Shown here piece by piece: positions 3,440 to 19,537 of a stretch of DNA of 22,246 nucleotides (its first letter is position 1; each line of letters begins with the position of its first letter). This stretch comes from Thraustochytrium sp. TN22 (lineage: Eukaryota > Sar > Bigyra > Thraustochytrida > Thraustochytriidae), in assembly GCA_013306675.1 (NCBI GenBank), contig JABLUY010000030.1, positions 1 to 22,246 on the forward strand, given 5' to 3'. The notes under the pieces are model-generated. The model saw only the letters and a program-made list of their open reading frames with translations, was not told the origin of the DNA and made no database searches. The translations under genes and the position numbers were made by a program.

Positions 3440-4951
3440 TCAGGCATCTGGACGAGCCGCAGGGGGGCGAAAGACACGGAGACCCGCAGATGGCGCCTCG
3501 CTACCAGTCAGCGAGCTGCCTGAAGCAGCGGCACCGGCAGCACCGAGCGGCGGCGTGGAGGCACCGTCGCGGGCATCTGCCTCGACCCCGGTATGCAGAG
3601 ACATCTCAAAGGCCAGCTCGCAATCGTGCTGGCCTATTCGGTACTGGTAAAAGTGGCCCTCGGCCGTCACGACCGAGACGAGACCCTTGCCAAGACAGCA
3701 GGCTGTGCGCATGCCGCTGTCCGGGAGCCGTGCCGTGGCAAAACTGCGCGCCGGCTCCACCATGTCGCTAATGGACCCGGGCAGGTACCTGCCGGCCACG
3801 GCCTTTTGCTTCTCGAGCAACGCCATGGCGTTCGACGCAGCCATGCCCAGGAGGGAGGACGCGCGGCTGTGGCCGCTCTGACGTCCCCAGCTCGAGTCGC
3901 GCGAAGAGCCCGGCGACCGCGCGCCAGAGTCGCCGTCCGCGCTCGCGCCGGCCGCCGCAGCTGCTGCGGAGCCGTAACGCGCGCCCGTGCCTGCATCGTC
4001 AGCGCCGCTGCCGCCGCGCGCTCCCTGCTCCGTTCCGTAGCGTGCCTCGGCCGTGAGCGCAAAGAGGTGCACGGTGCCGTGGCTCGAAGAGGCTGCGAGC
4101 GTGGCGCCGACCTCGTCAAAGGCCAGCGAGTACACCGTCGCCGGGTACGAGCCGCGGCGGAAGGAGTAGAGCTTCTCGCCGGATGGCACGCGAAAGACAC
4201 GCACGACGGTGCCAGTCTCGGAGGCCGTGGCCAGCATGCTGCCGTCGCGGCTAAACTGTAGTGCTGCGAGGCGGTTCTTGTGTGCCTGGATCCAGCGGAA
4301 CTCGACCAGGTTGAGCGCATCGTACAGGAAGACGTCGCCCGACACGCTATTGGCCGGGAGCGCCAAAAAGGAGCTGTTTTCATCTGGCGAGAGCTCGCAG
4401 AGCGGCGCCGTCAGCAGCGAGGAACTGGACTGCTGCTGCTGCTGTTGTTGCTGCTGCTGCTGTTGCTGCTGCTGGAGTTGCTGCTGCTGTTGTGCATTGC
4501 TGGCGGGCGAGGCGGGCGGCTGCGGCGGGGCACCAGGGTGCGCCGCGAGCGTGGCGACCTCGAGCGTCTGCAGATTCACCATGGTCTCGAGGTCATAAAT
4601 GTGGAGTTCGGTTTCCAGGACGACAATGAGGCGCTTGCGGTTCATCTTGACGGCAAGGATGCGCGAGTGAAAGTCGAGCTCGCAAATGACGCTTGCCGTC
4701 ATGCTATTCCAAAGCTTCAGGTGGCACGGCGAGAAGGCCGGCTTCTCGCCGCCTCCCACGAGCGCCACCAGGCTCGTGGAGAAGAGCATCTCCACGATGC
4801 CGATGCCGCCCTCGGTCGAGAAGATGTTGCGTCCGAACGGCTGGCAGTTGAAGATCCTGTACCCGCTCTTGGTCCCGATCGACACGCAGCTCGCGTCCTG
4901 ATTGAAGCCCATGAAGAGCATGTCCCGCTCCGCGCCGCTGCGCCGCGGCAT
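3440..4951 (-). CDS. Atg18/WIPI-type PROPPIN (PtdIns3P-binding autophagy protein)
   Basis: The predicted product is 503 aa. The start at 4951 (aggATGccg) is chosen because family similarity begins at once (MLFMGFNQDASCVSIGTKSG); the upstream open frame is Ala/Arg/Gly junk. Blade sequences follow in order: GYRIFNCQPFGR, VALVGGG, HLKLWNS, LHIYDLETM, NSFLALP-like, HKNRLAALQFSRDGSMLATASETGTVVRVF, then FRRGS at about 263-267, the phosphoinositide-binding FRRG signature. After GTVHLFAL comes a roughly 100-residue Ser/Gly/Ala-rich insert where PROPPINs carry the membrane-inserting 6CD loop. It ends in YLPGSISDMVEPARSFATARLP, typical of Atg18/WIPI1/2. A polyQ run at about 154-173 lies in another loop. 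By family, such proteins bind PtdIns3P or PtdIns(3,5)P2 on phagophores or endosomes and recruit Atg2 or Atg16. Atg18 versus WIPI2-like subtype is not decidable here. Confidence 0.93.
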   Translation of the reverse strand: MPRRSGAERDMLFMGFNQDASCVSIGTKSGYRIFNCQPFGRNIFSTEGGIGIVEMLFSTSLVALVGGGEKPAFSPCHLKLWNSMTASVICELDFHSRILAVKMNRKRLIVVLETELHIYDLETMVNLQTLEVATLAAHPGAPPQPPASPASNAQQQQQLQQQQQQQQQQQQQQQSSSSLLTAPLCELSPDENSSFLALPANSVSGDVFLYDALNLVEFRWIQAHKNRLAALQFSRDGSMLATASETGTVVRVFRVPSGEKLYSFRRGSYPATVYSLAFDEVGATLAASSSHGTVHLFALTAEARYGTEQGARGGSGADDAGTGARYGSAAAAAAGASADGDSGARSPGSSRDSSWGRQSGHSRASSLLGMAASNAMALLEKQKAVAGRYLPGSISDMVEPARSFATARLPDSGMRTACCLGKGLVSVVTAEGHFYQYRIGQHDCELAFEMSLHTGVEADARDGASTPPLGAAGAAASGSSLTGSEAPSAGLRVFRPPAARPDA

Positions 4952-5368
4952 CCTCCCCTTGTGCAGCCGTTCTGCCGGCCTGCCCGCCCGCCCGCCGGCG
5001 CCTGCCTGCCTACCTGCCTGCTGCCCCGCCGCGCCGCGCCGCCGCGCCGCCGCGCCGCCGCGCCGCGCCGCCGCCCGCGCAGCCCGCGCACGCGACGCGC
5101 CGCCGCCCGCGCGCGCAGGCGAGAACTCTTCTTCTGCTCTGCTCGCTCGAACCTGAAGCGGGTTTGGCACCGCCGCGGCGCGGCGCGAGTCCGAGTCCAG
5201 CCTGCTGGAGCTGCCGGTGCGGAGCAGGACCCAGAGGTCGACCACGCCGCCGAGACCGAGGGCCCGGCCCGACGTGGAGCGCGAGAGCGGAGAGCGAATA
5301 GATAAGAATATGGTATGCGAGTGGGAATGGTACATGATAAAAAGGACAGCCGAGGTCAGGTCACGCCG
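4952..5368 (-). promoter_or_regulatory. Leader/promoter interval of the Atg18/WIPI gene
   Basis: This 417-bp spacer lies between two genes on the minus strand. It is very GC-rich, with gcc/gcg triplet runs at about 5028-5080 and a repeated CAGGCAGG-like motif (plus-strand cctgcctgcctacctgcctg near 5001-5020). It should hold the 3' end of the 7TM gene and the promoter and leader of the WIPI gene. No further gene is seen. Confidence 0.35.
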
Positions 5369-6760: not shown

Positions 6761-7578
6761 GCTCTCGCGTGCCGCCGACCGCGCCGCCGCGGGGCCGCGG
6801 CGCTGCCTGCCGCTGCGCCCGCCTCGCCTCGCGCCGCCGCCGCGCGTTGACCGCGCCGCCGCGCCGCCGCGCGAAAGGGGAACGGGATCTGCGGGCGTCC
6901 GCGCGCCGACCATCGCTGCGCAGTAGTAGTAGGACTTGGCGGTGCCAGCCGTGCATTACATTACATACGTAAAACAGCAGCAGCTGGCGGAACGAAGAGC
7001 AAGGCAGCGAGCGCGGCGCGGCCCACCAAACCAGCCGCTGCACTCGAGCCTGGAGCTAGCTAGCTAGCCAGCGCAGGAAATATGCAGAGCTTGGGCGCCG
7101 TGCCCGTGGCAGTGGCCGGATCTGAACGCGCTCGTGGACCGCTGGACCGTGCTTGGACCGTGCGCACGTGAGCGATGCCTTCTGTCACGTTCTGTGCGAG
7201 GAAAATACAAGACGAAGGTGGAGTAGGCAGGGGCGGAGGCGGAGGTTGAAGGCTGTGTGCTTGGCCGCGATCTATGACGAGTTGTTCTGCTTCTCTTTTG
7301 TCACAAACACCCTGCCTCTCGTTGCTGCTGCGAAGTCACAAGGCGGAGAAGGCAAGTGCGTCCATGATCGCCCGTTGGCAGTCGAAACAAGAGTTTACAC
7401 AGGAAGCCTTGAAGAAGCGAGAACCAAAAAGCAACAAGAAAACGTTGAGCGGAGCGTGCTGTCTCAAACCTTTTCCGGCGCACCAACACGAGCCGTCGCG
7501 ATCCACGCAGTTGCTGTTTTTGCGAGTTATCCTGACTGAGAGTAAAGAAGAAGCCGAGGACCGTACCAGCACAAGGCC

Positions 7579-7662: not shown

Positions 7663-7777
7663 GTTGCATGGCCTTCTCGAGCACCTCCTCTCCGCAAACA
7701 AACGTCGAGCAGGGCTCTCGCTCCACTTTCCTGACGGAGAGTGAAGAAGAAGCCGAAGACCGTACCAGCAAAAGGCC

Positions 7778-7861
7778 ATGGATCTCGAAGATGCCTTGTA
7801 CAAGACCGATCCGCGACCAAGTGCCGCAAGGCTCGGCTTTCGGCACAGGCACCTTGGTTGA
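7778..7861 (+). CDS. Candidate upstream short ORF, copy 2 (27 codons)
   Basis: This is the homologue of the short ORF 199 bp upstream, with the same gccATGg context, length and stop position. It reads MDLEDALYKTDPRP through to RHRHLG. Five residues differ near the N-terminus and the last 14 or so are identical. It ends 86 bp before the main ATG at 7948. It is a candidate translational regulator only if it is included in the mRNA. Confidence 0.35.
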   Translation: MDLEDALYKTDPRPSAARLGFRHRHLG

Positions 7862-7947
7862 TCAGTGAGTGTTGCATAGCCTTCTCGAGCACCTCCTCTC
7901 CACAAACAAACGTCGAGCAGGGCTCTCGCTCCACTCCACATGGCACC

Positions 7948-9729
7948 ATGAGCGCCGCGGCGGCGGCGACGACGACGGCGGCAGAGGAGGAGGAGGAGGA
8001 GGAGGCCGCAAGCAGCAGCGGCAGCGAAGCCGCGGACGACGAGCAGCAGGAGCTCGGGGATGAGGAGCTCGATGAGACCGAGGCCGCCGCCGACCTGGAG
8101 CGCCGCCTCGCGCGCGCGCTGCAGGACCGCGCCAAGCTCGTGCAGGCGTGCAAGGACATGGCGGCTGAACGCCAGGCAGCCCGAGCGCAGGCCGGGAAGC
8201 TCGAGGAGCGCGCCAAAAAGGCAGAGGCGGCGCGGGACAAGCTTCAGGCGCGCAACCGCGACCTGGAGGCCACGGTCCAGGAGCTCCAGGAGCTCCAAAA
8301 GGCCGCGCCAGTGACGCCACGGGCGGCTGGACCACCCGTCCCCCGCACGCCGTGGGCCGCGCTCTGGGCCCTGCGCGCCCGCGTGGAGCTGGAGGTGGCC
8401 GCCGACACGGGCGACGCCAGCGGCCTCGCCGAGGCCGCCGCAGCCTGCGCAGAGGCCCTCTGCGCTGCGGGCCAGCGCAAGACCGCGGCCGGCCTGCGCG
8501 ATGCCCAGACCGCCGCGGCGGCGCTGCTGGTGCGCATCGCGCCCACCTTTGCCGGCAGCGAGCTCGCCATCGGCACCTGGACCTCGGTCGTTGTCATGCT
8601 CGCTCACCAGGAGCGCCTGCACAAGGGCTTTCGGACAGTCGTGCTGCGCAGCGTGCGCGCCTCCGTGGCGGCAGCCTGGGACGCCGGCGTGCGCGGCCGC
8701 GAGCTGCGCGGCTGGGGGGTCGCCTTCGGCGAGCTCGCCCAGCGCGCCGGCCAGCGCCGCCAGACCCGCGAGCTCCAGGTCGCCGCTGTCGACCGCCGCG
8801 ACTGGGTCTTCTTCGACGTCGTCGCCCAGGCATACCCATGGCTCGAACACAACGTCCTCGACGAGATCGTGCAGCTGCTGCGCTCCCGCGCCGCGCGCGC
8901 TGCCGGCGCCGCGCTCGATGACGTCCTGCGCGAGGAGCACCGCCTGCAGGCCGCCGTCCTCGCCTTCTTCGAGCACTCCGCAGACAAACGGCGCGGCCTG
9001 CTCACCAAAAACGGCCAAGCCGACATGGCGGCAGCCCTGGACCTGCTTGTCGCCCAGATGGGTCCGCGCTGGGTCCTTGAGCGCGTCGTGCTCGCCCTCC
9101 TTGTGCCTCGTCTCTGTGACGCCACTCTGGGACCCGTTCTGACCGGCATCGTGCGCAATGTTTGCACTGCTCACGTCGCGCAGAGCCGCGCCGTGGTCTC
9201 GGATATCCGAGCTGCGCTACGCGAGCGCCTCGATGTTGCGCCGCCCGCATCGACATCGCTTGGCGCGGACCTTCGCGGCCTCCTCGAAGACCTCGCCGCG
9301 GTCCTGCGCTCGCCTTTTTGCTCTGCTGACAAGACCACCGCGGTTGTTTCGCTCGACTTTGACGAACCGCGACCCCGCAAGCGTCGGCGAGACGAGCCAG
9401 AGAAGGAGCGCAACAGCAGCGTCAGCCATGAGCAGCGCGAAGGAGGCGGCGAGACGCACGACAACGAGCAAGAACCACAAGTCGACCATGACGGCGATGA
9501 AGACGGCGACGGCGAGTTCCTGGAGGAGCACAACGACGGGGAAGAACCCGCAAGCAGCGCAGATACGAGTGGCACGCAAGACCAGGCCCAGGCCCAGACA
9601 AACGCGAATGTCATGATGGGAGTGGAACCGGTGGAAGCTGTCGTAGTAAGCGCCAGCGCCCCGGGGCGGGCTGCCCCAGGAGGTGCAGCTGGCAGCCTAG
9701 TCGATCCCCCAGGCACGGAACACTTCTGA
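7948..9729 (+). CDS. Unknown coiled-coil, helical protein with acidic C-terminus
   Basis: The product is 593 aa from the ATG at 7948 (gcaccATGa). I do not recognise the family. Visible order: an Ala/Thr and polyGlu N-terminus (1-45); a heptad-like, Ala/Arg/Glu/Lys-rich coiled coil (about 48-115); a mostly helical, Ala/Leu/Arg-rich core (about 130-465) with local conserved-looking segments such as RRDWVFFDVVAQAYPWLEHN and MGPRWVLERVVLALLVPRL; a basic cluster RPRKRRRDEP near 474, a plausible nuclear localisation signal; and a Glu/Asp/Gln-rich disordered tail. There is no signal peptide or membrane segment. The upstream region is a tandem repeat with short ORFs, and a Harbinger transposon starts 29 bp after the stop, so its 3' UTR is probably truncated or supplied by the element. 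A nuclear scaffold or chromatin role is a guess. Confidence 0.75.
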   Translation: MSAAAAATTTAAEEEEEEEAASSSGSEAADDEQQELGDEELDETEAAADLERRLARALQDRAKLVQACKDMAAERQAARAQAGKLEERAKKAEAARDKLQARNRDLEATVQELQELQKAAPVTPRAAGPPVPRTPWAALWALRARVELEVAADTGDASGLAEAAAACAEALCAAGQRKTAAGLRDAQTAAAALLVRIAPTFAGSELAIGTWTSVVVMLAHQERLHKGFRTVVLRSVRASVAAAWDAGVRGRELRGWGVAFGELAQRAGQRRQTRELQVAAVDRRDWVFFDVVAQAYPWLEHNVLDEIVQLLRSRAARAAGAALDDVLREEHRLQAAVLAFFEHSADKRRGLLTKNGQADMAAALDLLVAQMGPRWVLERVVLALLVPRLCDATLGPVLTGIVRNVCTAHVAQSRAVVSDIRAALRERLDVAPPASTSLGADLRGLLEDLAAVLRSPFCSADKTTAVVSLDFDEPRPRKRRRDEPEKERNSSVSHEQREGGGETHDNEQEPQVDHDGDEDGDGEFLEEHNDGEEPASSADTSGTQDQAQAQTNANVMMGVEPVEAVVVSASAPGRAAPGGAAGSLVDPPGTEHF

Positions 9730-9755: not shown

Positions 9756-9758
9756 TAA
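9756..9758. other. Target-site duplication (left), TAA
   Basis: TAA directly precedes the first base of the left terminal inverted repeat and is repeated directly after the right one. A 3-bp TAA/TTA duplication is the hallmark of PIF/Harbinger insertion. Confidence 0.9.
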
Positions 9759-9802
9759 GGCTGTACGATCACGGCGCGCGGGTGAGTGCCGATGTCCGCT
9801 TC
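9759..9802 (+). repeat. Left terminal inverted repeat (44 bp)
   Basis: Begins GGCTGTACGATC and ends GTCCGCTTC. It is identical base for base to the reverse complement of 14607-14650. After three mismatches, a further tgccgaa also matches, so the repeat extends imperfectly to about 54 bp. Confidence 0.95.
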
Positions 9803-9975
9803 AGAGTGCCGAAGCCTGCCCAATCCGACTTCCAACCTAACCCCCCTTCCGCGGCCTTCCGAGCTAGGCATGTTGACGTATATGACAACTTTATTGATAG
9901 GACCATGTTATGGTTCTATTATTCGGTACTGAGTGGTGGTTGGTCGTTGTCACGCGGATTGCTCGACTCGCAGCA

Positions 9976-10038
9976 GTCGCGCAGCTCGCCGCTGGTCGGC
10001 AGCTCGTCGCTGGTCGCGCAGCTCGCCACTGGTCGCGC
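9976..10038 (+). repeat. Subterminal 18-19-bp tandem repeats inside the transposon
   Basis: Three and a half units begin at 9976, 9995, 10013 and 10032, built on gtcgcgcagctcgccgctg with one or two changes each. They lie about 220 bp inside the left end and upstream of the accessory gene start. Subterminal repeats in DNA transposons often bind transposase; that role here is inference. Confidence 0.8.
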
Positions 10039-10129
10039 TTACTCACACGCTTGTGCCCTACACCGGAGCCCCCGGCGTCGGATCCGTCCATTGCGCTCCG
10101 TTCTTCGCAGTCGAGTCGCAGCGGCCGCC

Positions 10130-12292
10130 ATGGCCATCCTTGAGAGCGACAGCGACTCCGAGTCGTCCAGCGGGGACAAAGCCATGCCCGCCAGCGCGGT
10201 GCAACACCAGCAGCACCAGGAGCCGATGCAGCAGCAAGTCCAGCAGCACGAGCCCCAGCGCCATCGCCTCCAGGACCAAACCCAGAGTATCTCGTCATCG
10301 TCGTCGTCATCTTCGTCATCTTCGTCATCTCCGCCGCAACCGCCGCAACCGCCGCCGCAGCAGCAGCAGCAGCAACAACAACAACAGCAAGAGGGACAGC
10401 AGGATCCGTCCTCGTCCCCGTCGCGGGAGGCGCTGCTGAAGGCCTGGGCGGGACACCTAGAAGAAGAAGCGCTGCGGCGCCTCGCTGAGCTTCTTGGCAA
10501 TGCGCAGGACACTGCCAGGGCGTTACAAACTCTCCAGGCGCTGCAGGTCCAACTGCAATCCAGTTCCAAAGCTGTGCTGCAAAAGCGTCTCAATGAAGCA
10601 TCGGAATTGCTTCTAGTCAGGTCCGCGTTCAGCTCAATCATGAAGTGGGGTCTCGAGTGTCTCAAGTCGATGCCTTCACCAGTGCAGGGGAGTCCACTCG
10701 TTGATCAGGATATTCTCCGCATACTGGAGCCTGGCGAGCCAAAGCCGGGTCTTCTCGTCATCCTCTTTCGCGGGGTGTACGAAGATTTTGATGCGCTTCA
10801 AACTCGCAACCGCAAGCCGCTGCTGGTACAGAGGAGCCTGAAGAAGGCCGAGGCCGACGGGCTTTTGCGCCTAGGCCAGCGCTTCCCAACGTCATTGTGC
10901 GACTATGCTATCGTCGCAGCGCTGCTTTTCTCGCTTCAGAATCTGGAGCGAGTGGGCAACGCGATTCGTCCCATGTCGAGCGGCAACACCTCGGCCGATT
11001 CCTGGCTCCAGTGGCTCGCGAGGCTACTGACGGAGGCAGCTGCTACCCACACGGCTGGAGGAGGGCCCACTTCGGGGCCTGGCGCTGCGAACACCCGGCG
11101 CGCAGCGCCTCGCTTTGCCGACTGGAAGTCATACGAGATGGCCGACACCGTCGCGCGTGTCGTCTGGATTCTTCTCCACCCTGACGACGAGGAGGCTGCG
11201 GACATTATGCGACGTCTCCGTGACCCCGGGAGTAGCAGCACAACCAGCACGCAAACGTTCGCGCTTAACACAATGCGCGAGACGGAGTACGCGGTGCTCG
11301 CGCGCAAGGTGAACGACCCCCAGGTCCGTGGTGAGCTGCTCGTGGAGGGCTCGCCGCTGAGACCATTGGGGCCACCAACACTTGGCGTTCCGTTTGACAT
11401 GCTCAAAGCTCGACAACTCATCGTGAAGATGAAATCCTCTTTCCAGAAGGCTACTGCAATTGCGAGCTACAGTGGTCAGAACATTCCAGACCCCTTCTCT
11501 GGTGCTGCTTCGTTCGGCGCTGACGCGCGTCAGTACGGAGAAGAGTATGTGCGGGCATCCTCCACGGGTGACTTTGAAGGATTGGAGGACGCGGACTACG
11601 CCGGGTATGGGACCAACCAGGACCATGACGACGAGCTTGATGAGGCGAAGACTTTCCGAGCTCGCCTCGTCGGGGACTCTGCGATCCGATTGCACGTGGA
11701 CGCCGTGTGCTATCTCGTGTTGGCAGCAAAAGACAGCGAAAGTCTAGCTGACCTCCTGGGCTCTGGCCCGGCGGATCAAGCGCCCACCCGAGACGCATCA
11801 GACGACAACGATGATGGTCGCGAGGGTAACATCCTCTCGGATAGCAGCAGCTTGGCGGACTCCTCTTCAGGACGTCTTTCTTCCGCACGCGGTCGGACGC
11901 CGCGTGGACGTGGGCGAAGAGCAGCCCATTCTGAACGCCGCCTTGATTCCCGCAGGCGGCGTGCAGATAGCGCGAGACGCTCGCGAAGCACGTCTACCAC
12001 ACCTCGGTCGCGCGGGATGAGCAGGAGTCCACGGTTCTACACGGTGTTTGGAGATGAACACAACGCATCTTTAGCAACGCAGGTTCATGCCGCGAACAAG
12101 CGAAAGGCTGATTATGAGCAATCGCCGCGGGAGGCCAGGGAGGCCAAGATCAGGCGGCGGATCGCGGATATCGAGAAGATCATTGATCGTTACCCAGACG
12201 CCACTGCGCCCGATGGCACGACTTACCAAGCGAGGCATCTTCGGCTGTTGCAAAGCCTCGTAGGCGAGGAAGACGAGGAATACATGTCTTGA
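10130..12292 (+). CDS. Harbinger accessory (second) protein, unknown family
   Basis: The product is 720 aa. The ATG at 10130 has a near-perfect context (gccgccATGg). The frame stays open upstream as far as the left terminal repeat, so an N-terminal extension from the ATG at 9905 is possible. Visible order: an acidic Ser/Asp start; Gln/His-rich segment (25-50); polySer (about 55-67); Pro/Gln run ending in polyGln (68-87); a helical, globular-looking core (about 98-500); a Ser/Asp-rich linker; an Arg/Ser-rich stretch at about 577-640, reminiscent of RS domains; and a charged C-terminal helix (about 665-720) with KIRRRIADIEKIIDRYP. PIF/Harbinger elements usually encode a Myb/SANT-like partner that binds DNA and carries the transposase to the nucleus. 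I see no three-helix Trp-spaced Myb signature here. Its placement inside the element makes a transposition-partner role likely; the fold is unknown. Confidence 0.8.
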   Translation: MAILESDSDSESSSGDKAMPASAVQHQQHQEPMQQQVQQHEPQRHRLQDQTQSISSSSSSSSSSSSSPPQPPQPPPQQQQQQQQQQQEGQQDPSSSPSREALLKAWAGHLEEEALRRLAELLGNAQDTARALQTLQALQVQLQSSSKAVLQKRLNEASELLLVRSAFSSIMKWGLECLKSMPSPVQGSPLVDQDILRILEPGEPKPGLLVILFRGVYEDFDALQTRNRKPLLVQRSLKKAEADGLLRLGQRFPTSLCDYAIVAALLFSLQNLERVGNAIRPMSSGNTSADSWLQWLARLLTEAAATHTAGGGPTSGPGAANTRRAAPRFADWKSYEMADTVARVVWILLHPDDEEAADIMRRLRDPGSSSTTSTQTFALNTMRETEYAVLARKVNDPQVRGELLVEGSPLRPLGPPTLGVPFDMLKARQLIVKMKSSFQKATAIASYSGQNIPDPFSGAASFGADARQYGEEYVRASSTGDFEGLEDADYAGYGTNQDHDDELDEAKTFRARLVGDSAIRLHVDAVCYLVLAAKDSESLADLLGSGPADQAPTRDASDDNDDGREGNILSDSSSLADSSSGRLSSARGRTPRGRGRRAAHSERRLDSRRRRADSARRSRSTSTTPRSRGMSRSPRFYTVFGDEHNASLATQVHAANKRKADYEQSPREAREAKIRRRIADIEKIIDRYPDATAPDGTTYQARHLRLLQSLVGEEDEEYMS

Positions 12293-12301
12293 TCAGTTCT
12301 T

Positions 12302-14182
12302 TTATTGCATCGTGTCAGGGGTGATTCTCGTGTGCCGTCGAGTCCTAAGCTTGCGTCGCGCGTTGCGTTGAGTTCTGAGGAGATGTGCTCTGTCCACCTT
12401 GTTTCGCCACTTCCGCTCGGCTCGGGCAACGTCAAAGGTGTAGTGCATCCTGAGCTCCCGCGAAAGCCGCGTCCGGCGTTGTGATGCTCTACTGTTGGGT
12501 GGCACGGCAAGGTCGCGGCCACCGCCGAGCTCAATGGTCTGGGCAGGCACCTCATTGCTCGACAACGGCGCACCCTGGACGTGCAAGGTGCTAAGGTCCG
12601 TGCCGTTTGGCGACCTGTCGGTCACAGGCCCGAATGTAGTCGATAAGGTTGCCTGTTGGAAATTCTCTGCCACGTTGCGGCCGCGACAGAAGTTGTGTAG
12701 CAGCACGCTGGCGCGAAAGATGCTCTGCGCTAGACGGACGTCCTTGGTGGGAATGTGCCGGATGATGCGGAAGCGGTTTGTGAGGATACCGAAGCTCATT
12801 TCAATGCGGCATCGCAGGGAGGAGAGCTTTTCGTTGAAAGAGGTGCGCTCCAGCGATCTCCCCGTGCGCGCAAACGGGGTAATGATCTGGTCGCAGCAGG
12901 TGTATGCGCCGTCAGCTGCAATCCAGTAGTCGTCACCGAGCTTGTTGTGCACCTTGATAGCGGTATGTAACGTTGTGTCTTGAAAGCACCTCGAGTCCGA
13001 TGTGCTCCCGTAGAAGAACTTGGAGCAGAACGTGAACTCGTAGTTGGCATTGCACATGCACTGGAATACAATCGCATGATAGCCCTTGCGGCAGTAGAAG
13101 CGACCAGCCGTCGGTAGGTCAGGTTTCAGAACGCGGACCACAATGCCGTCCAGCGCTCCAACGCAGTTTTGCATGGTGCGCGCTCCGCGTTCATAGTCGT
13201 ACGTGAGTACATTGAAGCCGTGCGCAAGTGCGCGGAGCTTTTCTTCACTGCCGAACGGGTCAGAGTCGATGAGGTGGCTCATCGTAGTGATGATGGCCTC
13301 CACACCATCCTTCGCGAGCTTGGGCACCGTGTCTGGGGCGATGCCAAAGATGCTGGAAATTGCGAGTGTAGAGTCCACGCCTCCGAGGTAAATGAGGGTC
13401 ACCGCCATGATTGTGCGCGGACAGCAAAGTACGATGTCGGAGCGCAGACACATGGACGCGTCACGCTGCAGGCGAGGGTGGTCTCTCACGATCTCCATGA
13501 GGGCGTTGAAGGAGTCGAGGTCCATTCTGATCCACCGGCGAAAGTATCGGTCGCGACTCATGTCGGACCCCTCCCATGTCCTCACAAACTGCTCCCAGCC
13601 GATGCGCACCCGCCGACTTCCGTATACATACAGCCGAGGCTCACCAAGAATACGCCGGGCCTCGTCGTCGAGTCTGGCGGCTAAGCGATAGCACTTGCGA
13701 CGCCTCGCAGCGTCAGCTTCTGCTCGCAGAAGTCGTGCCTCAACCCAATCAAGGCATCGCGGGGCCATCCACCACGGGTAGACTTTCCTGTACGAGCCAA
13801 AACGGAACTCGAGCGACAGCTCCTCCGGGCTGACGTAAGGCGGAGGCTCATAGCCGAGACGTCTCGTCATCTCGTCATGCTTCTCATCGAGGACGCGCAT
13901 GCAATCAGCTCCGAACGGCGTCCACTCGGAGACTGACGTCGACGGACGGGCGGCGCGCAGATAGTGCATGATCTCCAACCTATGTGGCGTCAGGTCTTCA
14001 TAGACTTCTTCCATCTCGGCGAGAGCCTCTGCTTCGACAAAACTGACCCGTCCATCGGCCTCACGCACTTCCACGATTTGAGCATCATCTTGCGAAGCCT
14101 GCCCCGTGTCCTCGCCAGTGTCTTCCCCGGACTCGTGCGACGCGTCTTCGAGTGCATCTGCGTCGCCGCGCGCAGCCGCCAT
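12302..14182 (-). CDS. PIF/Harbinger DDE transposase
   Basis: The product is 626 aa from the ATG at 14182. The frame is open to 14395, but that extension is Arg-rich and looks like leader. The nuclease core is clear: GALDGIVVRVLKP carries D345, FYCRKGYHAIVFQCMCNAN follows, YGSTSDSRCF carries the family Asp at 396, IAADGAY carries D424, and FNEKLSSLRCRIEMSFGIL carries E461, followed by NRFRIIRHIP and LLHNFCRGRN. This matches the DDE_Tnp_4/HARBI1 superfamily, with 36 residues between the last two catalytic positions. The N-terminal 330 residues are acidic at first, then helical, and probably hold the DNA-binding part. The C-terminus is strongly basic. By family it cuts and pastes the element at TWA sites, typically with help from the second element-encoded protein. 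All three catalytic residues are present. Confidence 0.95.
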   Translation of the reverse strand: MAAARGDADALEDASHESGEDTGEDTGQASQDDAQIVEVREADGRVSFVEAEALAEMEEVYEDLTPHRLEIMHYLRAARPSTSVSEWTPFGADCMRVLDEKHDEMTRRLGYEPPPYVSPEELSLEFRFGSYRKVYPWWMAPRCLDWVEARLLRAEADAARRRKCYRLAARLDDEARRILGEPRLYVYGSRRVRIGWEQFVRTWEGSDMSRDRYFRRWIRMDLDSFNALMEIVRDHPRLQRDASMCLRSDIVLCCPRTIMAVTLIYLGGVDSTLAISSIFGIAPDTVPKLAKDGVEAIITTMSHLIDSDPFGSEEKLRALAHGFNVLTYDYERGARTMQNCVGALDGIVVRVLKPDLPTAGRFYCRKGYHAIVFQCMCNANYEFTFCSKFFYGSTSDSRCFQDTTLHTAIKVHNKLGDDYWIAADGAYTCCDQIITPFARTGRSLERTSFNEKLSSLRCRIEMSFGILTNRFRIIRHIPTKDVRLAQSIFRASVLLHNFCRGRNVAENFQQATLSTTFGPVTDRSPNGTDLSTLHVQGAPLSSNEVPAQTIELGGGRDLAVPPNSRASQRRTRLSRELRMHYTFDVARAERKWRNKVDRAHLLRTQRNARRKLRTRRHTRITPDTMQ

Positions 14183-14606
14183 CGGCGCTGCTCGCCCTCG
14201 CCCGTGACCTTCGTGCGAGCGCGGGAGCTCCTCCGCGTCTCTTGTACAGCAGCGCAGCCGCCGCCGCTCGCCACTCGCGCGTCCCGGCGCCAACTGTCGC
14301 AGCAGCCCCCGTAGCCGCAGCCAAGGACTTCGTCGATTGCAACACTGCCTCCTGTCGCCGTGCTCTGCTGTGCAACTCATCGACTCAACCACCACCGCGT
14401 CTAACCACCGCGCAACCCCGGATTCCGACGCAAAAGAGCGCCGAAGTGAATTTAGGACTTACCAGCACTCAGTTTTGGACGGGTCACAGGGTCTGTTCCC
14501 CGTAAAGTATTATTGCCTGGCCGGCCCTGGCCGTCGGCAGGCTGCCCCCCCGCTCGCGGCCAAACCTTCCAACAGGGAACATTGGGAATCGAACTTTCGG
14601 CATGCC

Positions 14607-14650
14607 GAAGCGGACATCGGCACTCACCCGCGCGCCGTGATCGTACAGCC
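14607..14650 (-). repeat. Right terminal inverted repeat (44 bp)
   Basis: This is the exact reverse complement of the left repeat at 9759-9802. It ends ...gatcgtacagcc and is followed directly by the TAA duplication. Confidence 0.95.
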
Positions 14651-14653
14651 TAA
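14651..14653. other. Target-site duplication (right), TAA
   Basis: Directly follows the right terminal repeat and matches 9756-9758. Removing the element plus one TAA restores a plausible continuous 3' flank of the upstream gene. Confidence 0.9.
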
Positions 14654-15028
14654 CAATTTGGAAGAGACGACGCGCGATCCGAGAACCTGCCCCCGCTAAG
14701 CGCCGCAGCGCCGCAACGCCGCACTGGCAGCGCGCGTCGGCCCTCCCAGTGCAAATGACTGACTGCGCTAGGCCAGGCAAGCTACTAGTAGTAGTGTTCA
14801 ATCACCCGTGACTGTGCGGCAGACAGGCGGCGTCGTGACGCTTGGATCACGCGTGACTCGCGTGATGAAGGCTTGGTTACATACCGTGCCACGTCACCAA
14901 GCCTAACTTTGCGCGTCGACCCGGCGCTGCCACGCCGTTGAGGCAGCAGATACCAATCATCGCGACGGGACAGCACTCTAGCTAGCTAGCCATAGCTGGA
15001 GCCAGCCTTGCAAGCCAGCTCAAGAGCC
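14654..15028. promoter_or_regulatory. Spacer between the transposon and the first zinc-module gene
   Basis: This 375-bp spacer likely holds the displaced 3' flank of the coiled-coil gene and the promoter of the zinc-module gene. It contains a perfect palindrome TCACGCGTGA at 14847-14856, part of a larger hairpin (atcacgcg / cgcgtgat at 14846-14866), an aggcttggt / accaagcct inverted repeat (14869-14904), and a CTAG tetranucleotide run at 14978-14991. No gene is seen. Confidence 0.5.
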
Positions 15029-15925
15029 ATGAGTGAGCGGAAGCGGAAGCAGGGCAAGCGTGAGGAGGCGGTCATCAAACTCGAACACGGCGACAAGAAT
15101 AAAGTCGGGGCGAAGAAGGCGGCTCGTGCGAAGCGAGTCAAGCAGGAGAAGCTGACGGATGACCCAAAGCTGACGGATGACCCGAACGTCGAGCCGGAGC
15201 CCGCTTCACATCTGCACCTGAACATCGCGCCGAAGCCTGCTTCGCACATTTGCCCAAAGACCGAGCCAGAGCCTGTCTCGCCGGAGCCAGCTCCGCAACC
15301 CGAACCCGCCCAGCCCTTGCACGCCCTGCGCTGCACCATGTGCCCAAAGCAAGCGCAGGATCGCCACGCTGGCTATCCACTGTGCGCCTATCACATCACG
15401 CACAAGTGTCACGTCGACCAATGCATCAGGATCGCCGTAGACCGTGGCAACACGCGCTGTAGACCGTGCCATCAAGGTGCTTCGTACAGTATTTGTACCA
15501 TCCCAGGCTGCGAGGAGGAGACCAAGCACCGCACCCGTTGCCAAAAGCACACGAGCGAGACAGGGACCTTTCGAACCACGGACTTCAGACACCAGCTCTG
15601 CAAATTCATCAATGCCCGCAACCAGCACACATGCTTCAACAAGAAGGTGCCGCACGGGCAAATGTGCCTTCTTCACCGGGAGCAAGACGTATGTGGCCAA
15701 AGTGGTTGCAAAGCCCAGAGGTACCACATCAACACCTTCTGCAAGAACCACTACAAGAGCAATCCCGACAATATCCAACTCCGCCCATTCACGTTCGTGC
15801 GAGACTTCGAGAGCGGCACGTGCGAGCGTGAACATCCCAGGCTCTTCAACAAGTACCTCGAGAAACGCCACGTGATGGCCGCGGCCGACGAGGAGTCGCG
15901 TCGCAAGCAGGCCTCTAAGAGCTAG
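15029..15925 (+). CDS. Cys/His-rich zinc-module protein, copy 1
   Basis: The product is 298 aa from the ATG at 15029 (gagccATGa). The N-terminus is basic (KRKQGKRE, KKAARAKRVKQEK; possible nuclear signal), followed by a Pro/Glu linker with an LTDDPKLTDDP repeat. From residue 102 there are five Cys/His clusters: C102-x2-C105-x13-C119-x2-H122; C127-x4-C132-x11-C144-x2-C147; C156-x4-C161-x9-C171-x2-H174; C191-x10-C202-x10-C213-x2-H216; C222-x4-C227-x10-C238-x2-H241. The C-x4-C-xn-C-x2-H spacing recalls WRKY19-like zinc fingers of oomycetes and plants, but I cannot assign it to that family. The C-terminus carries a motif, HYKSNPDNIQLRP, shared exactly with the neighbour. It is probably zinc-binding and nuclear; targets are unknown. 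It is the tandem paralogue of the next gene. Confidence 0.8.
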   Translation: MSERKRKQGKREEAVIKLEHGDKNKVGAKKAARAKRVKQEKLTDDPKLTDDPNVEPEPASHLHLNIAPKPASHICPKTEPEPVSPEPAPQPEPAQPLHALRCTMCPKQAQDRHAGYPLCAYHITHKCHVDQCIRIAVDRGNTRCRPCHQGASYSICTIPGCEEETKHRTRCQKHTSETGTFRTTDFRHQLCKFINARNQHTCFNKKVPHGQMCLLHREQDVCGQSGCKAQRYHINTFCKNHYKSNPDNIQLRPFTFVRDFESGTCEREHPRLFNKYLEKRHVMAAADEESRRKQASKS

Positions 15926-16172: not shown

Positions 16173-17345
16173 ATGAGCAACCCGAAGAGAAACGCTGCCA
16201 GTGAGCTTGCGGAGGGAACGACCGGCGAAAAGCGGGTGAGGACAGAGGAGACGCAACCGGAGGAAACCCGGCAAGAGAACTCGATGCCGACGACGCAACC
16301 GGAGGAGACCCAGCGAGAAGACTCGATGCTGACGCCGACGCCGACGCCGACGTCGCCGACGCGGACGCTGCCGACGCTGCCCGACAAATGCGCGGGGTAT
16401 GGCTGCCAAAATACGCCAGTTCTTATTCTGTTTGGCAAGCCTCTGTGCACTTGTCACTACACTAAAAGGTGCCATGTCGACAAATGTATCGGGATCGCCA
16501 CGGCCCGTGGCAACACGCGCTGCAGAGATTGTGAGCTTGCGGAGGGAACAACGGGCGAACAGCGGGTGAGGACAGAGGAGACGCGACCGGAGGAAACCCA
16601 GCAAGAGAACTCGATGCCGACGACGCAACCGGAGGAGACCCAGCGAGAAGACTCGATGCTGACGCCGACGCCGACACCGACGCCGACGCCAACGTCGATG
16701 ACGCCGACGCTGCCGAGGCTGCCCGACAAATGCGCGGGGTATCGCTGCCAAAAAACGCCAGTTCTTTTTCTGTTTGGCAAGCCTTTGTGCCTTCGTAACT
16801 ACAGTAAAAGGTGCCAGGTCGACGGGTGCATCAAAATCGCAACCAACAAGAAGTGTTGTCGGCAACACTATCGAGGTCGTGACTACAGTCGCTGCAAACA
16901 ACGTAGTTGTACCAAAGACTCAAAGCACCGTGAAAAGTGCGAGGACCACACCACCAAGACAGGGGAATATCGAACTCGTGACTTCAGACAGAAACTCTGC
17001 AAGTTCAACATCGACAACCAGTACATGTGCTTCAACAACAAGGAGCGCTTCAGCCAAATGTGCGAGGGGCACCAGAAGCAAGACGTATGTGGCCGCAATG
17101 GCTGCGAAGCAAAGAGGTACCACTTCAACACCTTCTGCGAGAACCACTACAAGAGCAATCCCGACAACATCCAACTCCGCCCATGCACCTACCCGCGTGA
17201 CTTCGAGGCGTGCAAGGAATCCCATCCCTCACTCTACCGTACGTATCAGACCGAGCGCGACGATATGGAAGACGCCGACGAAGAAAGTCGCACGAAGGCC
17301 CGAGCAAAGAGAGCTTCCCAGCGTCCTCCTGCCCAGCCTGCATAA
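16173..17345 (+). CDS. Cys/His-rich zinc-module protein, copy 2, with internal duplication
   Basis: The product is 390 aa from the ATG at 16173 (gaagATGa), chosen because MSNPKR parallels the MSERKR start of copy 1. The frame is open to an ATG at 15987 in a poor context. Residues 11-120 and 121-230 are an in-frame 330-bp repeat: an acidic Thr/Glu/Gln linker with a TP-dipeptide run, then two zinc modules. Unit A has C73-x4-C78-x13-C92-x2-H95 and C100-x4-C105-x11-C117-x2-C120. Unit B has C187-x4-C192-x13-C206 but Asn209 where His is expected, then C214-x4-C219-x8-C228/C229 with H232. Three further modules (241-259, 276-300, 306-325) match copy 1 closely, including HYKSNPDNIQLRP. The tail is basic. 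It is probably zinc-binding and nuclear; function is unknown. Confidence 0.8.
   Translation: MSNPKRNAASELAEGTTGEKRVRTEETQPEETRQENSMPTTQPEETQREDSMLTPTPTPTSPTRTLPTLPDKCAGYGCQNTPVLILFGKPLCTCHYTKRCHVDKCIGIATARGNTRCRDCELAEGTTGEQRVRTEETRPEETQQENSMPTTQPEETQREDSMLTPTPTPTPTPTSMTPTLPRLPDKCAGYRCQKTPVLFLFGKPLCLRNYSKRCQVDGCIKIATNKKCCRQHYRGRDYSRCKQRSCTKDSKHREKCEDHTTKTGEYRTRDFRQKLCKFNIDNQYMCFNNKERFSQMCEGHQKQDVCGRNGCEAKRYHFNTFCENHYKSNPDNIQLRPCTYPRDFEACKESHPSLYRTYQTERDDMEDADEESRTKARAKRASQRPPAQPA
16201..16860. repeat. In-frame 330-bp tandem duplication in zinc-module copy 2
   Basis: Unit A starts at 16201 (gtgagcttgcggagggaacg) and unit B at 16531 (gtgagcttgcggagggaaca), a period of exactly 110 codons. Similarity is high through the acidic linker and first zinc module and fades in the last 30 bp of each unit. 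Confidence 0.93.
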
Positions 17346-17902
17346 ACCGCCCCACCACCCTCGGCGGAGCTTGGCCCGCAGAGCAAAAAAGCTTAACCAT
17401 CATCATCTTTCCTCTCTTCGATTTCATCACCAGCGCGACCGCAGAGCACGCGTGCCGCCGCTCCCGAAGCGACCTTGCGCATCGCGGTCGCGGGGGGGGG
17501 CAGGCCGCGTTCCGAGCCTGCGACGACCAGTTGAGCCGCGGCGGCGGCGGCGCGCGGTCGCGGTTTGCGCCCTCGGATCGAGCGCCGAGACGCGCAGCGC
17601 AACCCCCATCTAACGGGCGGCGTCCGGAATGGTTTGCGACGGGCGCGACGGCGCCAACGGGCGAGCCCGCGGCGGCGGCGCGCGCGCGGCAGACCAGATC
17701 ACTCGCAGCGGCGCGGCGCGGCGGCGCGGCTCGGCTCGGCGCGGCTCGGCGGCGCGGCGGCGGAGCTCGGCTCGCGGACGCGGCCCCCGGCGCCCGGCTC
17801 GCGCGGCGCGGCGCGGCAGCGGCGGCGCGGCGGCGGTTGGCGCGGCATCGGCATCGGCATCGCGGCTCCCTTCGCGAACGAAGACAGGCAGGGCAAGGCA
17901 CC
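17346..17902 (+). promoter_or_regulatory. Promoter/leader region of the CCT1 gene
   Basis: This 557-bp spacer is moderately AT-containing up to about 17450, then very GC-rich, with a 9-base G run near 17490 and gcggcg/gcgcgg runs from about 17690. The CCT1 frame is open upstream here, but its Arg/Ala-rich reading is GC-driven and precedes the conserved chaperonin start. Just before the ATG lies a CAGGCAGG-like motif (acaggcagggcaaggcacc). No other gene is seen. Confidence 0.5.
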
Positions 17903-19537
17903 ATGTCGGAGGGCGGGATGCTGGCGATCGACGGCAAGCGCGAGACGGGCCAGGATGTGCGCACGCAGAACATGATGGCCGCGGTGTCCATCGCCAACAT
18001 CGTCAAGAGCAGCCTGGGCCCGGTGGGTCTGGATAAGATGCTCGTGGACAACGTCGGCGAGGTGACGGTGACCAACGACGGCGCGACCATCCTCAAGCTG
18101 CTGGACGTGGAGCACCCGGCCGGCAAGGTGCTGTGCGAGCTGGCGGACCTGCAGGACCAGGAGGTGGGCGACGGCACCACGTCGGTGGTGATTCTGGCGG
18201 CGGAGCTGCTCAAGCGCGCCAACGAGCTGGTCAAGCAGCGCATCCACCCGACGAGCATCATCAGCGGCTACAAGCTGGCGCTCAAGGAGGCGGTGCGGTA
18301 CATCAAGAAGAACCTGACCATCCCCATGGTCAAGCTGGAGCGGTCCAACCTCATCATGGCGGCCAAGACCTCCATGAACAGCAAGGTCATCGGCCCCGAG
18401 AGCGACCACTTCGCGGAGATGGCCGTCACCGGCATGATGAACGTGGCCACGGAGCGCCCGGACGGTTCGGTGCGCTACCCGCTCAAGGCCATCAACATCC
18501 TCAAGGCGCACGGCCGCTCGTCGCGCGAGAGCAAGCTCGTGGATGGCTACGCCATCAACTGCACCCGCGCCGCGCAGGGCATGCCCACCTTCGTGCAGAA
18601 CGCCAAGATCGCGCTTCTGGACTTTGCGCTCAGCCGGCACAAGCTCAAGCTCGGCGTGCAGGTCCTCGTCAAGGACCCGCGCGAGCTCGAGGCGCTCCAG
18701 CAGCGCGAGCTCGACATCACCAAGGAGAAGATCCAGTCCATCATCAAGTCTGGCGCCAACGTCGTGCTCTGCTCCAAGGGCATTGACGACGTCTGCCTCA
18801 AGTACTTTGTGGAGGCCGGTGCCATGGCCGTCCGCCGTGTGCCCAAGGACGACTTGCGCCGTATCGCCAAGGCCACCGGTGGTGAGCTTGTGCTGACCAT
18901 GACGGACGAGGAGGGCGGCGACGAAGTTTTCGACCCTGCCTGGCTCGGCTCGGCCAAGGAGGTTTCCGAGGAGCGCCTCGGCGACGGCGAGCTCATCTAC
19001 ATCAAGGGATGTGTCAAGACCGCCGCCCAGACCATCGTGCTGCGCGGCGCCAACGAGTACCACCTCGACGAGATCGAGCGCTCGCTTCATGACTCCCTCT
19101 CCATTATCAAGCGCGTGTTGGAGACCAACACGCTCGTGGCCGGTGGCGGCGCCGTCGAGACTGCGCTCTCCGTGCACCTCGAGGACTACGCCTCGACGCT
19201 CGGCACTCGCGAGCAGCTCGCCATTGTTGAGTTCGCGCAGGCGCTGCTCGTCATTCCGCGCACGCTCGCCACCAACGCGGCCCAGGACGCCACCGAGCTC
19301 GTGGCGCAGCTCCGCGCCAAGCATGCCAAGGCGCAGCAGGCGCCCGAGGAGAACGCTGGCATGCAGTATGCCGGCCTCGATCTCGTCGCTGGCAAGGTTA
19401 TCAACTGCTTCGAAAGCGGCATCCTCGAGCCCGCCATCTCCAAGGTCAAGTCGCTGCGTTTTGCCACCGAGGCCGCCGTTACCATTGTCCGCATCGACGA
19501 CTCCATCGTCTTGAACAAGCGGGAGAACCCTCAGTAG
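17903..19537 (+). CDS. CCT1: CCT/TRiC chaperonin subunit alpha (TCP-1 alpha)
   Basis: The product is 544 aa, the usual length for the family. The start at 17903 (gcaccATGt) places ETGQDVRTQN near residue 14, as in other CCT1 proteins. Group II chaperonin signatures are all present: SSLGPVGLDKMLVD (36-49), VTNDGATIL (56-64), the catalytic GDGTTS (89-94), KTSMNSK (155-161), GGIDD-like KGIDDVCLKYFVEAGAMAVRR (292-312) and AGGGAVE (413-419), with the closing RFATEAAVTIVRIDD. The alpha subtype is chosen from the LEVEHPA-like LDVEHPAGKVLCELADLQDQEVGDG, IHPTSIISGY and INILKAHGRS segments, which fit CCT1 rather than other subunits. By family it is one of eight subunits of the cytosolic ATP-driven ring that folds actin, tubulin and other substrates. 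It is a single-copy housekeeping gene in most eukaryotes and a useful phylogenetic marker here. Confidence 0.97.
   Translation: MSEGGMLAIDGKRETGQDVRTQNMMAAVSIANIVKSSLGPVGLDKMLVDNVGEVTVTNDGATILKLLDVEHPAGKVLCELADLQDQEVGDGTTSVVILAAELLKRANELVKQRIHPTSIISGYKLALKEAVRYIKKNLTIPMVKLERSNLIMAAKTSMNSKVIGPESDHFAEMAVTGMMNVATERPDGSVRYPLKAINILKAHGRSSRESKLVDGYAINCTRAAQGMPTFVQNAKIALLDFALSRHKLKLGVQVLVKDPRELEALQQRELDITKEKIQSIIKSGANVVLCSKGIDDVCLKYFVEAGAMAVRRVPKDDLRRIAKATGGELVLTMTDEEGGDEVFDPAWLGSAKEVSEERLGDGELIYIKGCVKTAAQTIVLRGANEYHLDEIERSLHDSLSIIKRVLETNTLVAGGGAVETALSVHLEDYASTLGTREQLAIVEFAQALLVIPRTLATNAAQDATELVAQLRAKHAKAQQAPEENAGMQYAGLDLVAGKVINCFESGILEPAISKVKSLRFATEAAVTIVRIDDSIVLNKRENPQ

What the first reader, a model, noticed from the sequence alone, without database searches (positions are those of the whole stretch)
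9756..14653. Structurally complete, possibly active PIF/Harbinger transposon
The 44-bp terminal repeats are 100% identical, both flanks carry TAA, the transposase keeps D345, D424 and E461, and both element genes are uninterrupted. Together these suggest recent insertion and potential autonomy. PIF/Harbinger elements are known for TWA target duplications and two-gene structure; recency is inference.
Basis: partly seen in the sequence, partly recalled or inferred. Interest (0 to 1): 0.75.

Follow-up and report, generated by a model that had tools for sequence, protein, structure and literature searches.

The report
Intact two-gene PIF/Harbinger DNA transposon
This is a complete-looking cut-and-paste DNA transposon in the genome of what is probably a marine protist, the best preserved of a small and mostly decayed family; it is an ordinary kind of mobile element except that its second protein resembles no known helper protein.

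Summary
A 4,892-bp element (9759-14650) has terminal inverted repeats matching at 44 of 44 positions, TAA on both sides, and two convergent open genes: a DDE_Tnp_4 transposase with D345, D424 and E461, and a 720-aa second protein. Target duplication, ends, transposase and two-gene layout fit PIF/Harbinger. 'Possibly active' is reasonable; 'recent' is only bounded. Identity of terminal inverted repeats is no clock, and no near-identical copy was found. The close relatives found are diverged and damaged: C224 (85% aa; one end and most of gene 2 missing), C398 (53%; catalytic E lost), C88 (about 657 bp, internally deleted). The window transposase has a tree branch of 0.032 against 0.16 for C224, which suggests that this copy was kept working longer. 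Absence of stops allows at most about 2% neutral decay. The unusual point is gene 2: no Pfam family reached its cut-off (no Myb/SANT), nothing matched in a large protein search, and matches elsewhere in this genome lie at two loci only. Myb-type partners evolve fast, so this may be a hidden one. The host is probably a thraustochytrid (nearest named relative: Hondaea fermentalgiana). A new member of a known kind.

The parts
9756..9758 (.). target site duplication TAA, left
   Evidence: sequence
9759..9802 (+). left 44-bp terminal inverted repeat
   Evidence: 44 of 44 match
10130..12292 (+). gene 2, 720-aa protein, no Pfam family above its cut-off; start codon uncertain
12302..14182 (-). transposase, 626 aa, DDE_Tnp_4, triad D345 D424 E461
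14607..14650 (-). right 44-bp terminal inverted repeat
14651..14653 (.). target site duplication TAA, right
   Evidence: sequence

Best explanation
A structurally complete, probably autonomous PIF/Harbinger-type cut-and-paste transposon. Its transposase, helped by the second element protein, pairs the two 44-bp ends, cuts the element out and joins it into a TAA target, duplicating the 3 bp. Shown: ends, target duplication, transposase domain with catalytic triad, open second gene. Inferred from the family: the cut-and-paste steps, the need for both proteins, and gene 2 acting as DNA-binding or nuclear-import partner. It is the best preserved copy found of a small family and was probably under selection for longer than its nearest relative.
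For: Ends and TAA; DDE_Tnp_4 and triad; both frames open; ends shared with C88, C224 and partly C398; tree branch 0.032 against 0.16 for C224; resolved amino-acid changes 13 on the window and 33 on C224, p 0.0045; the last part of gene 2 is also beside the C224 transposase. In print, PIF/Harbinger has TWA duplications, two ORFs and mostly short ends (PMC4482050, section 5 read).
Against: No Myb/SANT domain in gene 2 and no HTH in the transposase by Pfam. No near-identical copy in the own genome (counts are lower bounds). dN/dS between window and C224 is 0.80, near neutral; the window branch alone does not differ from neutral (p 0.29); and the contrast of replacement with silent changes between the branches is not significant (Fisher p 0.22). 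No expression or movement was seen.
Confidence: 0.62

Rival explanations
1. A complete-looking but immobile relic: it inserted some time ago, is no longer expressed or mobilised, and has not yet gained visible damage.
For: It is a single copy as far as found, with diverged and damaged relatives; the window branch does not differ from neutral (p 0.29); the C224 transposase frame is also open although that element is broken, so an open frame is weak evidence of activity.
Against: Perfect ends, exact TAA, both frames open and the short branch; neutral decay is capped near 0.021 changes per site.
Confidence: 0.3
2. Gene 2 is not a transposition partner but a passenger gene picked up by the element; the transposase works alone or with a host protein. 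(This concerns gene 2 only and can hold beside the best explanation.)
For: No Myb/SANT or other family above its cut-off; a relative of gene 2 stands on C420 with no transposase match within about 3.9 kb on either side; the C398 and C63 elements have a transposase but no detectable gene 2.
Against: It stands where the usual partner stands, is open, and its tail is also beside the C224 transposase. The one-gene elements may be defective: C398 lacks the catalytic E.
Confidence: 0.2
3. It belongs to another group of the same superfamily, such as NuwaII (target C|TNA|G).
For: TAA fits TNA and the base before it is C; no reference transposases of the groups were at hand for a tree.
Against: The base after the duplication is C, not G; TAA fits the TWA of PIF/Harbinger.
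Confidence: 0.07

Closest known systems
PIF/Harbinger group of the PHIS superfamily (PMC4482050, abstract, passages and section 5 seen)
   Same: TWA target duplication, ends under 60 bp starting with G, DDE transposase, two ORFs, length near the published mean of about 4,124 bp
   Different: Gene 2 shows no Myb/SANT domain and is 720 aa against about 300-400 aa (PMC9710019, passages seen); no HTH found in the transposase
PHISTA elements of rust fungi (PMC12730594, passages seen)
   Same: Harbinger-related elements whose third protein has no Myb/SANT domain
   Different: They have TA target duplications and a TET/JBP dioxygenase; here TAA and neither
Protein ALP1-like of Hondaea fermentalgiana (P0005)
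   Same: Nearest named relative of the transposase, 56% identity over 36% of the query
   Different: A 273-aa gene model whose last part aligns poorly; its surroundings were not seen

Membership tests
PIF/Harbinger | TWA target site duplication | tested here: met
   TAA on both sides; one site only
PIF/Harbinger | DDE transposase of this superfamily | tested here: met
   DDE_Tnp_4 87.6 bits against a cut-off of 24.8; D345, D424, E461
PIF/Harbinger | terminal inverted repeats, mostly under 60 bp, first base A or G | tested here: met
   44 bp, first base G
PIF/Harbinger | two ORFs (most autonomous candidates) | tested here: met
PIF/Harbinger | second ORF with a Myb/SANT domain (most autonomous candidates) | tested here: inconclusive
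   No such Pfam match at E up to 1; the structure model was too poor to judge the fold; such proteins evolve fast (PMC9710019, passages)
PIF/Harbinger | HTH motif in the transposase (most autonomous candidates) | tested here: inconclusive
   No HTH family among the 3 Pfam matches; structure model poor
PIF/Harbinger | paralogous empty site confirming the duplication | tested here: inconclusive
   Flanks matched nothing in the fetched loci; the whole genome was not searched for them
NuwaII | C|TNA|G target | tested here: not met
   The target reads C TAA C; the outer bases are a preference in print and only one site is at hand
ISL2EU | AT duplication and a YqaJ exonuclease as second protein | tested here: not met
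   TAA; no YqaJ match

The most novel reading that the evidence does not exclude
The second gene is a true transposition partner of a new, non-Myb type: a protein family so far seen only in this genome, probably of a thraustochytrid, which takes the place of the Myb/SANT adaptor of Harbinger elements and has a relative standing apart from any transposase (C420).
Probability: 0.35. Interest if true: 0.5.

Novelty: new member of a known kind. Interest (0 to 1): 0.3.

Why it matters
If it is active, an intact Harbinger element in a probable thraustochytrid would be a natural way to study mobility in these marine protists. Its second gene allows a test of whether Harbinger transposases always need a Myb-type partner. 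Otherwise it is an ordinary mobile element.

Tried and rejected
Structure: both predictions were poor (gene 2 alone, mean pLDDT 40.9; transposase with one relative, 36.8), so no fold search was made.

PDB by sequence: nothing for the transposase at E up to 1; for gene 2 three weak matches, E 0.88 to 4.1, taken as chance. Viral contigs: 4 pattern matches for gene 2 and 6 for the transposase alignment, none confirmed.

A resemblance of gene 2 to the far side of the C398 element was rejected: 32, 10 and 28 of 200 shuffles did as well in the three frames. The left-hand ORFs beside the window element and the C224 element show no relation. Ten ORFs near the other transposases and C224 gave no Myb/SANT match; these were 10 of many.

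Papers: thraustochytrid with Harbinger and transposable elements 0; thraustochytrid with transposon, transposase and genome 0; a thraustochytrid paper with DNA transposons in its repeat table exists (PMC12258536, passages; 'Harbinger' 0 times in it). A search for Harbinger elements without Myb returned unrelated papers. I make no claim that the element is absent from print.

Rows dropped: of the 9 matches to the transposase (10 candidates scored) one is the window; C274 (at a contig end) and C444 (52 aa) were left out of alignment A1 and the tree. The tree used the first 190 of 273 residues of P0005. Its C36 and P0003 branches are long and their places unsure.

Full report
What is there. The element runs from 9759 to 14650 (4,892 bp) with TAA on both sides (9756-9758 and 14651-14653). 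Its ends are inverted repeats identical at 44 of 44 positions, after which they diverge at once. Two convergent genes lie in it: gene 2 on the plus strand (10130-12292, 720 aa) and the transposase on the minus strand (14182-12302, 626 aa), their stop codons 9 bp apart. The transposase matches DDE_Tnp_4 at E 8.7e-25. D345, D424 and E461 are confirmed; in an alignment of 8 transposases both D are in 8 of 8 and E in 7 of 8, the exception being the C398 copy, which has M there.

Host. The assembly has 37.9 Mb in 453 contigs; the window is 65% GC. It holds a eukaryotic CCT-alpha gene. The nearest named relative of the transposase is from Hondaea fermentalgiana, a thraustochytrid, so the host is probably a thraustochytrid. 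This is an inference; the 18S search did not complete.

The family in this genome. The transposase search gave 9 matches: the window, C224 (85%), C398 (53%), C387, C63, C30, C36 and two fragments. C224 is 87% identical in DNA over 2,488 aligned columns covering the transposase, one subterminal region and the last part of gene 2. Its gene 2 is cut to about its last 50 codons, with stops just upstream; only one end was found, and the triplet beside it is AGA, not TAA. C88 carries about 657 bp made of the left end, then pieces of the right side, then an end resembling the right end, with no matching target duplication: an internally deleted derivative, presumably old. C398 has its own perfect 44-bp inverted repeats but no clear target duplication by eye, no catalytic E, and no detectable gene 2. 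Counts of repeats by the genome search are lower bounds, as the tool states.

Selection and age. Between the window and C224 transposases dN is 0.086 and dS 0.108, ratio 0.80, which is near neutral; the ratio is 1.0 and 1.08 in the two outer parts and 0.56 and 0.68 in the two middle parts. With C398 as outgroup over 578 codons, amino-acid changes resolve as 33 on C224, 13 on the window and 48 unresolved; silent changes as 8, 7 and 18. The amino-acid asymmetry has p 0.0045, but the contrast with silent changes is not significant (Fisher p 0.22), and the window branch alone does not differ from neutral (p 0.29). Tree branches are 0.032 for the window and 0.16 for C224. About 5.6 stops would be expected among 161 random changes and none is seen in either copy (P about 0.004), so the frames were probably under selection for part of the time. 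I read this as a window copy kept working longer than C224. For age, the absence of stops allows under about 0.021 neutral changes per site, and the identical ends and duplications under about 0.032 per arm. These are upper limits under neutral change; they do not show that the insertion is recent.

Gene 2. No Pfam family reached its cut-off; the best hit was SR-25 at 19 bits against a cut-off of 40. NCBIfam gave nothing at E 0.01. A search of about 5.8 billion proteins gave nothing at E 0.001 among the 7,991 candidates scored. In the own genome it has three further matches, at two loci, out of 43 candidates scored: two pieces at the end of contig C157 (52% and 44%) and one on C420 (30%). The C157 stretch has stops. 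The C420 protein is an open frame of 417 residues with no family above its cut-off and no transposase match within about 3.9 kb on either side. Most autonomous PIF/Harbinger candidates encode a Myb/SANT protein in this place (PMC4482050, section 5 read), and both proteins are required in the tested systems (PMC2836001, passages seen). Such proteins evolve fast and are hard to find by BLAST (PMC9710019, passages seen), so the missing domain is not proof of a new type. A non-Myb accompanying protein has a precedent in PHISTA (PMC12730594, passages seen), and ISL2EU has a different second protein (PMC9179366, passages seen).

Mechanism. By family knowledge the transposase pairs the ends, excises the element and inserts it at TAA. 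Gene 2 most likely serves as adaptor, binding the ends or bringing the transposase to the nucleus; it has basic clusters at residues 608, 657 and 675, and the transposase has two as well, at 160 and 609. That role is inference. Of 9 occurrences of TGCCGA on both strands of the element, 7 lie within 300 bp of an end, some of them inside the repeats. They are candidate binding sites, not tested against chance.

Verdict. The element is a new member of a known kind, structurally complete and plausibly autonomous. Recency is bounded, not shown. The open question worth a specialist's time is gene 2.

Noticed in passing
17201-19537 (+): Gene for T-complex protein 1 subunit alpha (TIGR02340, 827 bits against a cut-off of 800), a host gene.
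   Followed up: partly
3440-5368 (-): PROPPIN/WD40 protein (PF21032, E 6.1e-49), a host gene.
   Followed up: no
14996-15925 (+): Open frame rich in Cys and His, just right of the element; no Pfam family above its cut-off.
   Followed up: no
7735-9729 (+): 664-aa open frame ending 26 bp before the left TAA; no Pfam family above its cut-off. If it is a gene, the element sits just behind it.
   Followed up: partly
L031:3369-6296 (contig C63): Another Harbinger-like element of about 2.9 kb with one open frame matching DDE_Tnp_4 and TTT beside both ends.
   Followed up: partly
L029:3882-5132 (contig C420): Open frame related to gene 2 (30%), with no transposase match nearby.
   Followed up: partly
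L027:3718-3757, 7244-7283, 9606-9645 (contig C398): A 40-bp repeat in three copies, two of which flank the C398 element in inverted order.
   Followed up: no
L004 and L005 (contig C88): The same chance strings recur at regular places, which hints at duplicated segments around the C88 copy.
   Followed up: no
10130-14182: Third-position GC of the element genes is 0.66 and 0.70, against 0.86 in the CCT-alpha frame; only one host frame was compared.
   Followed up: no
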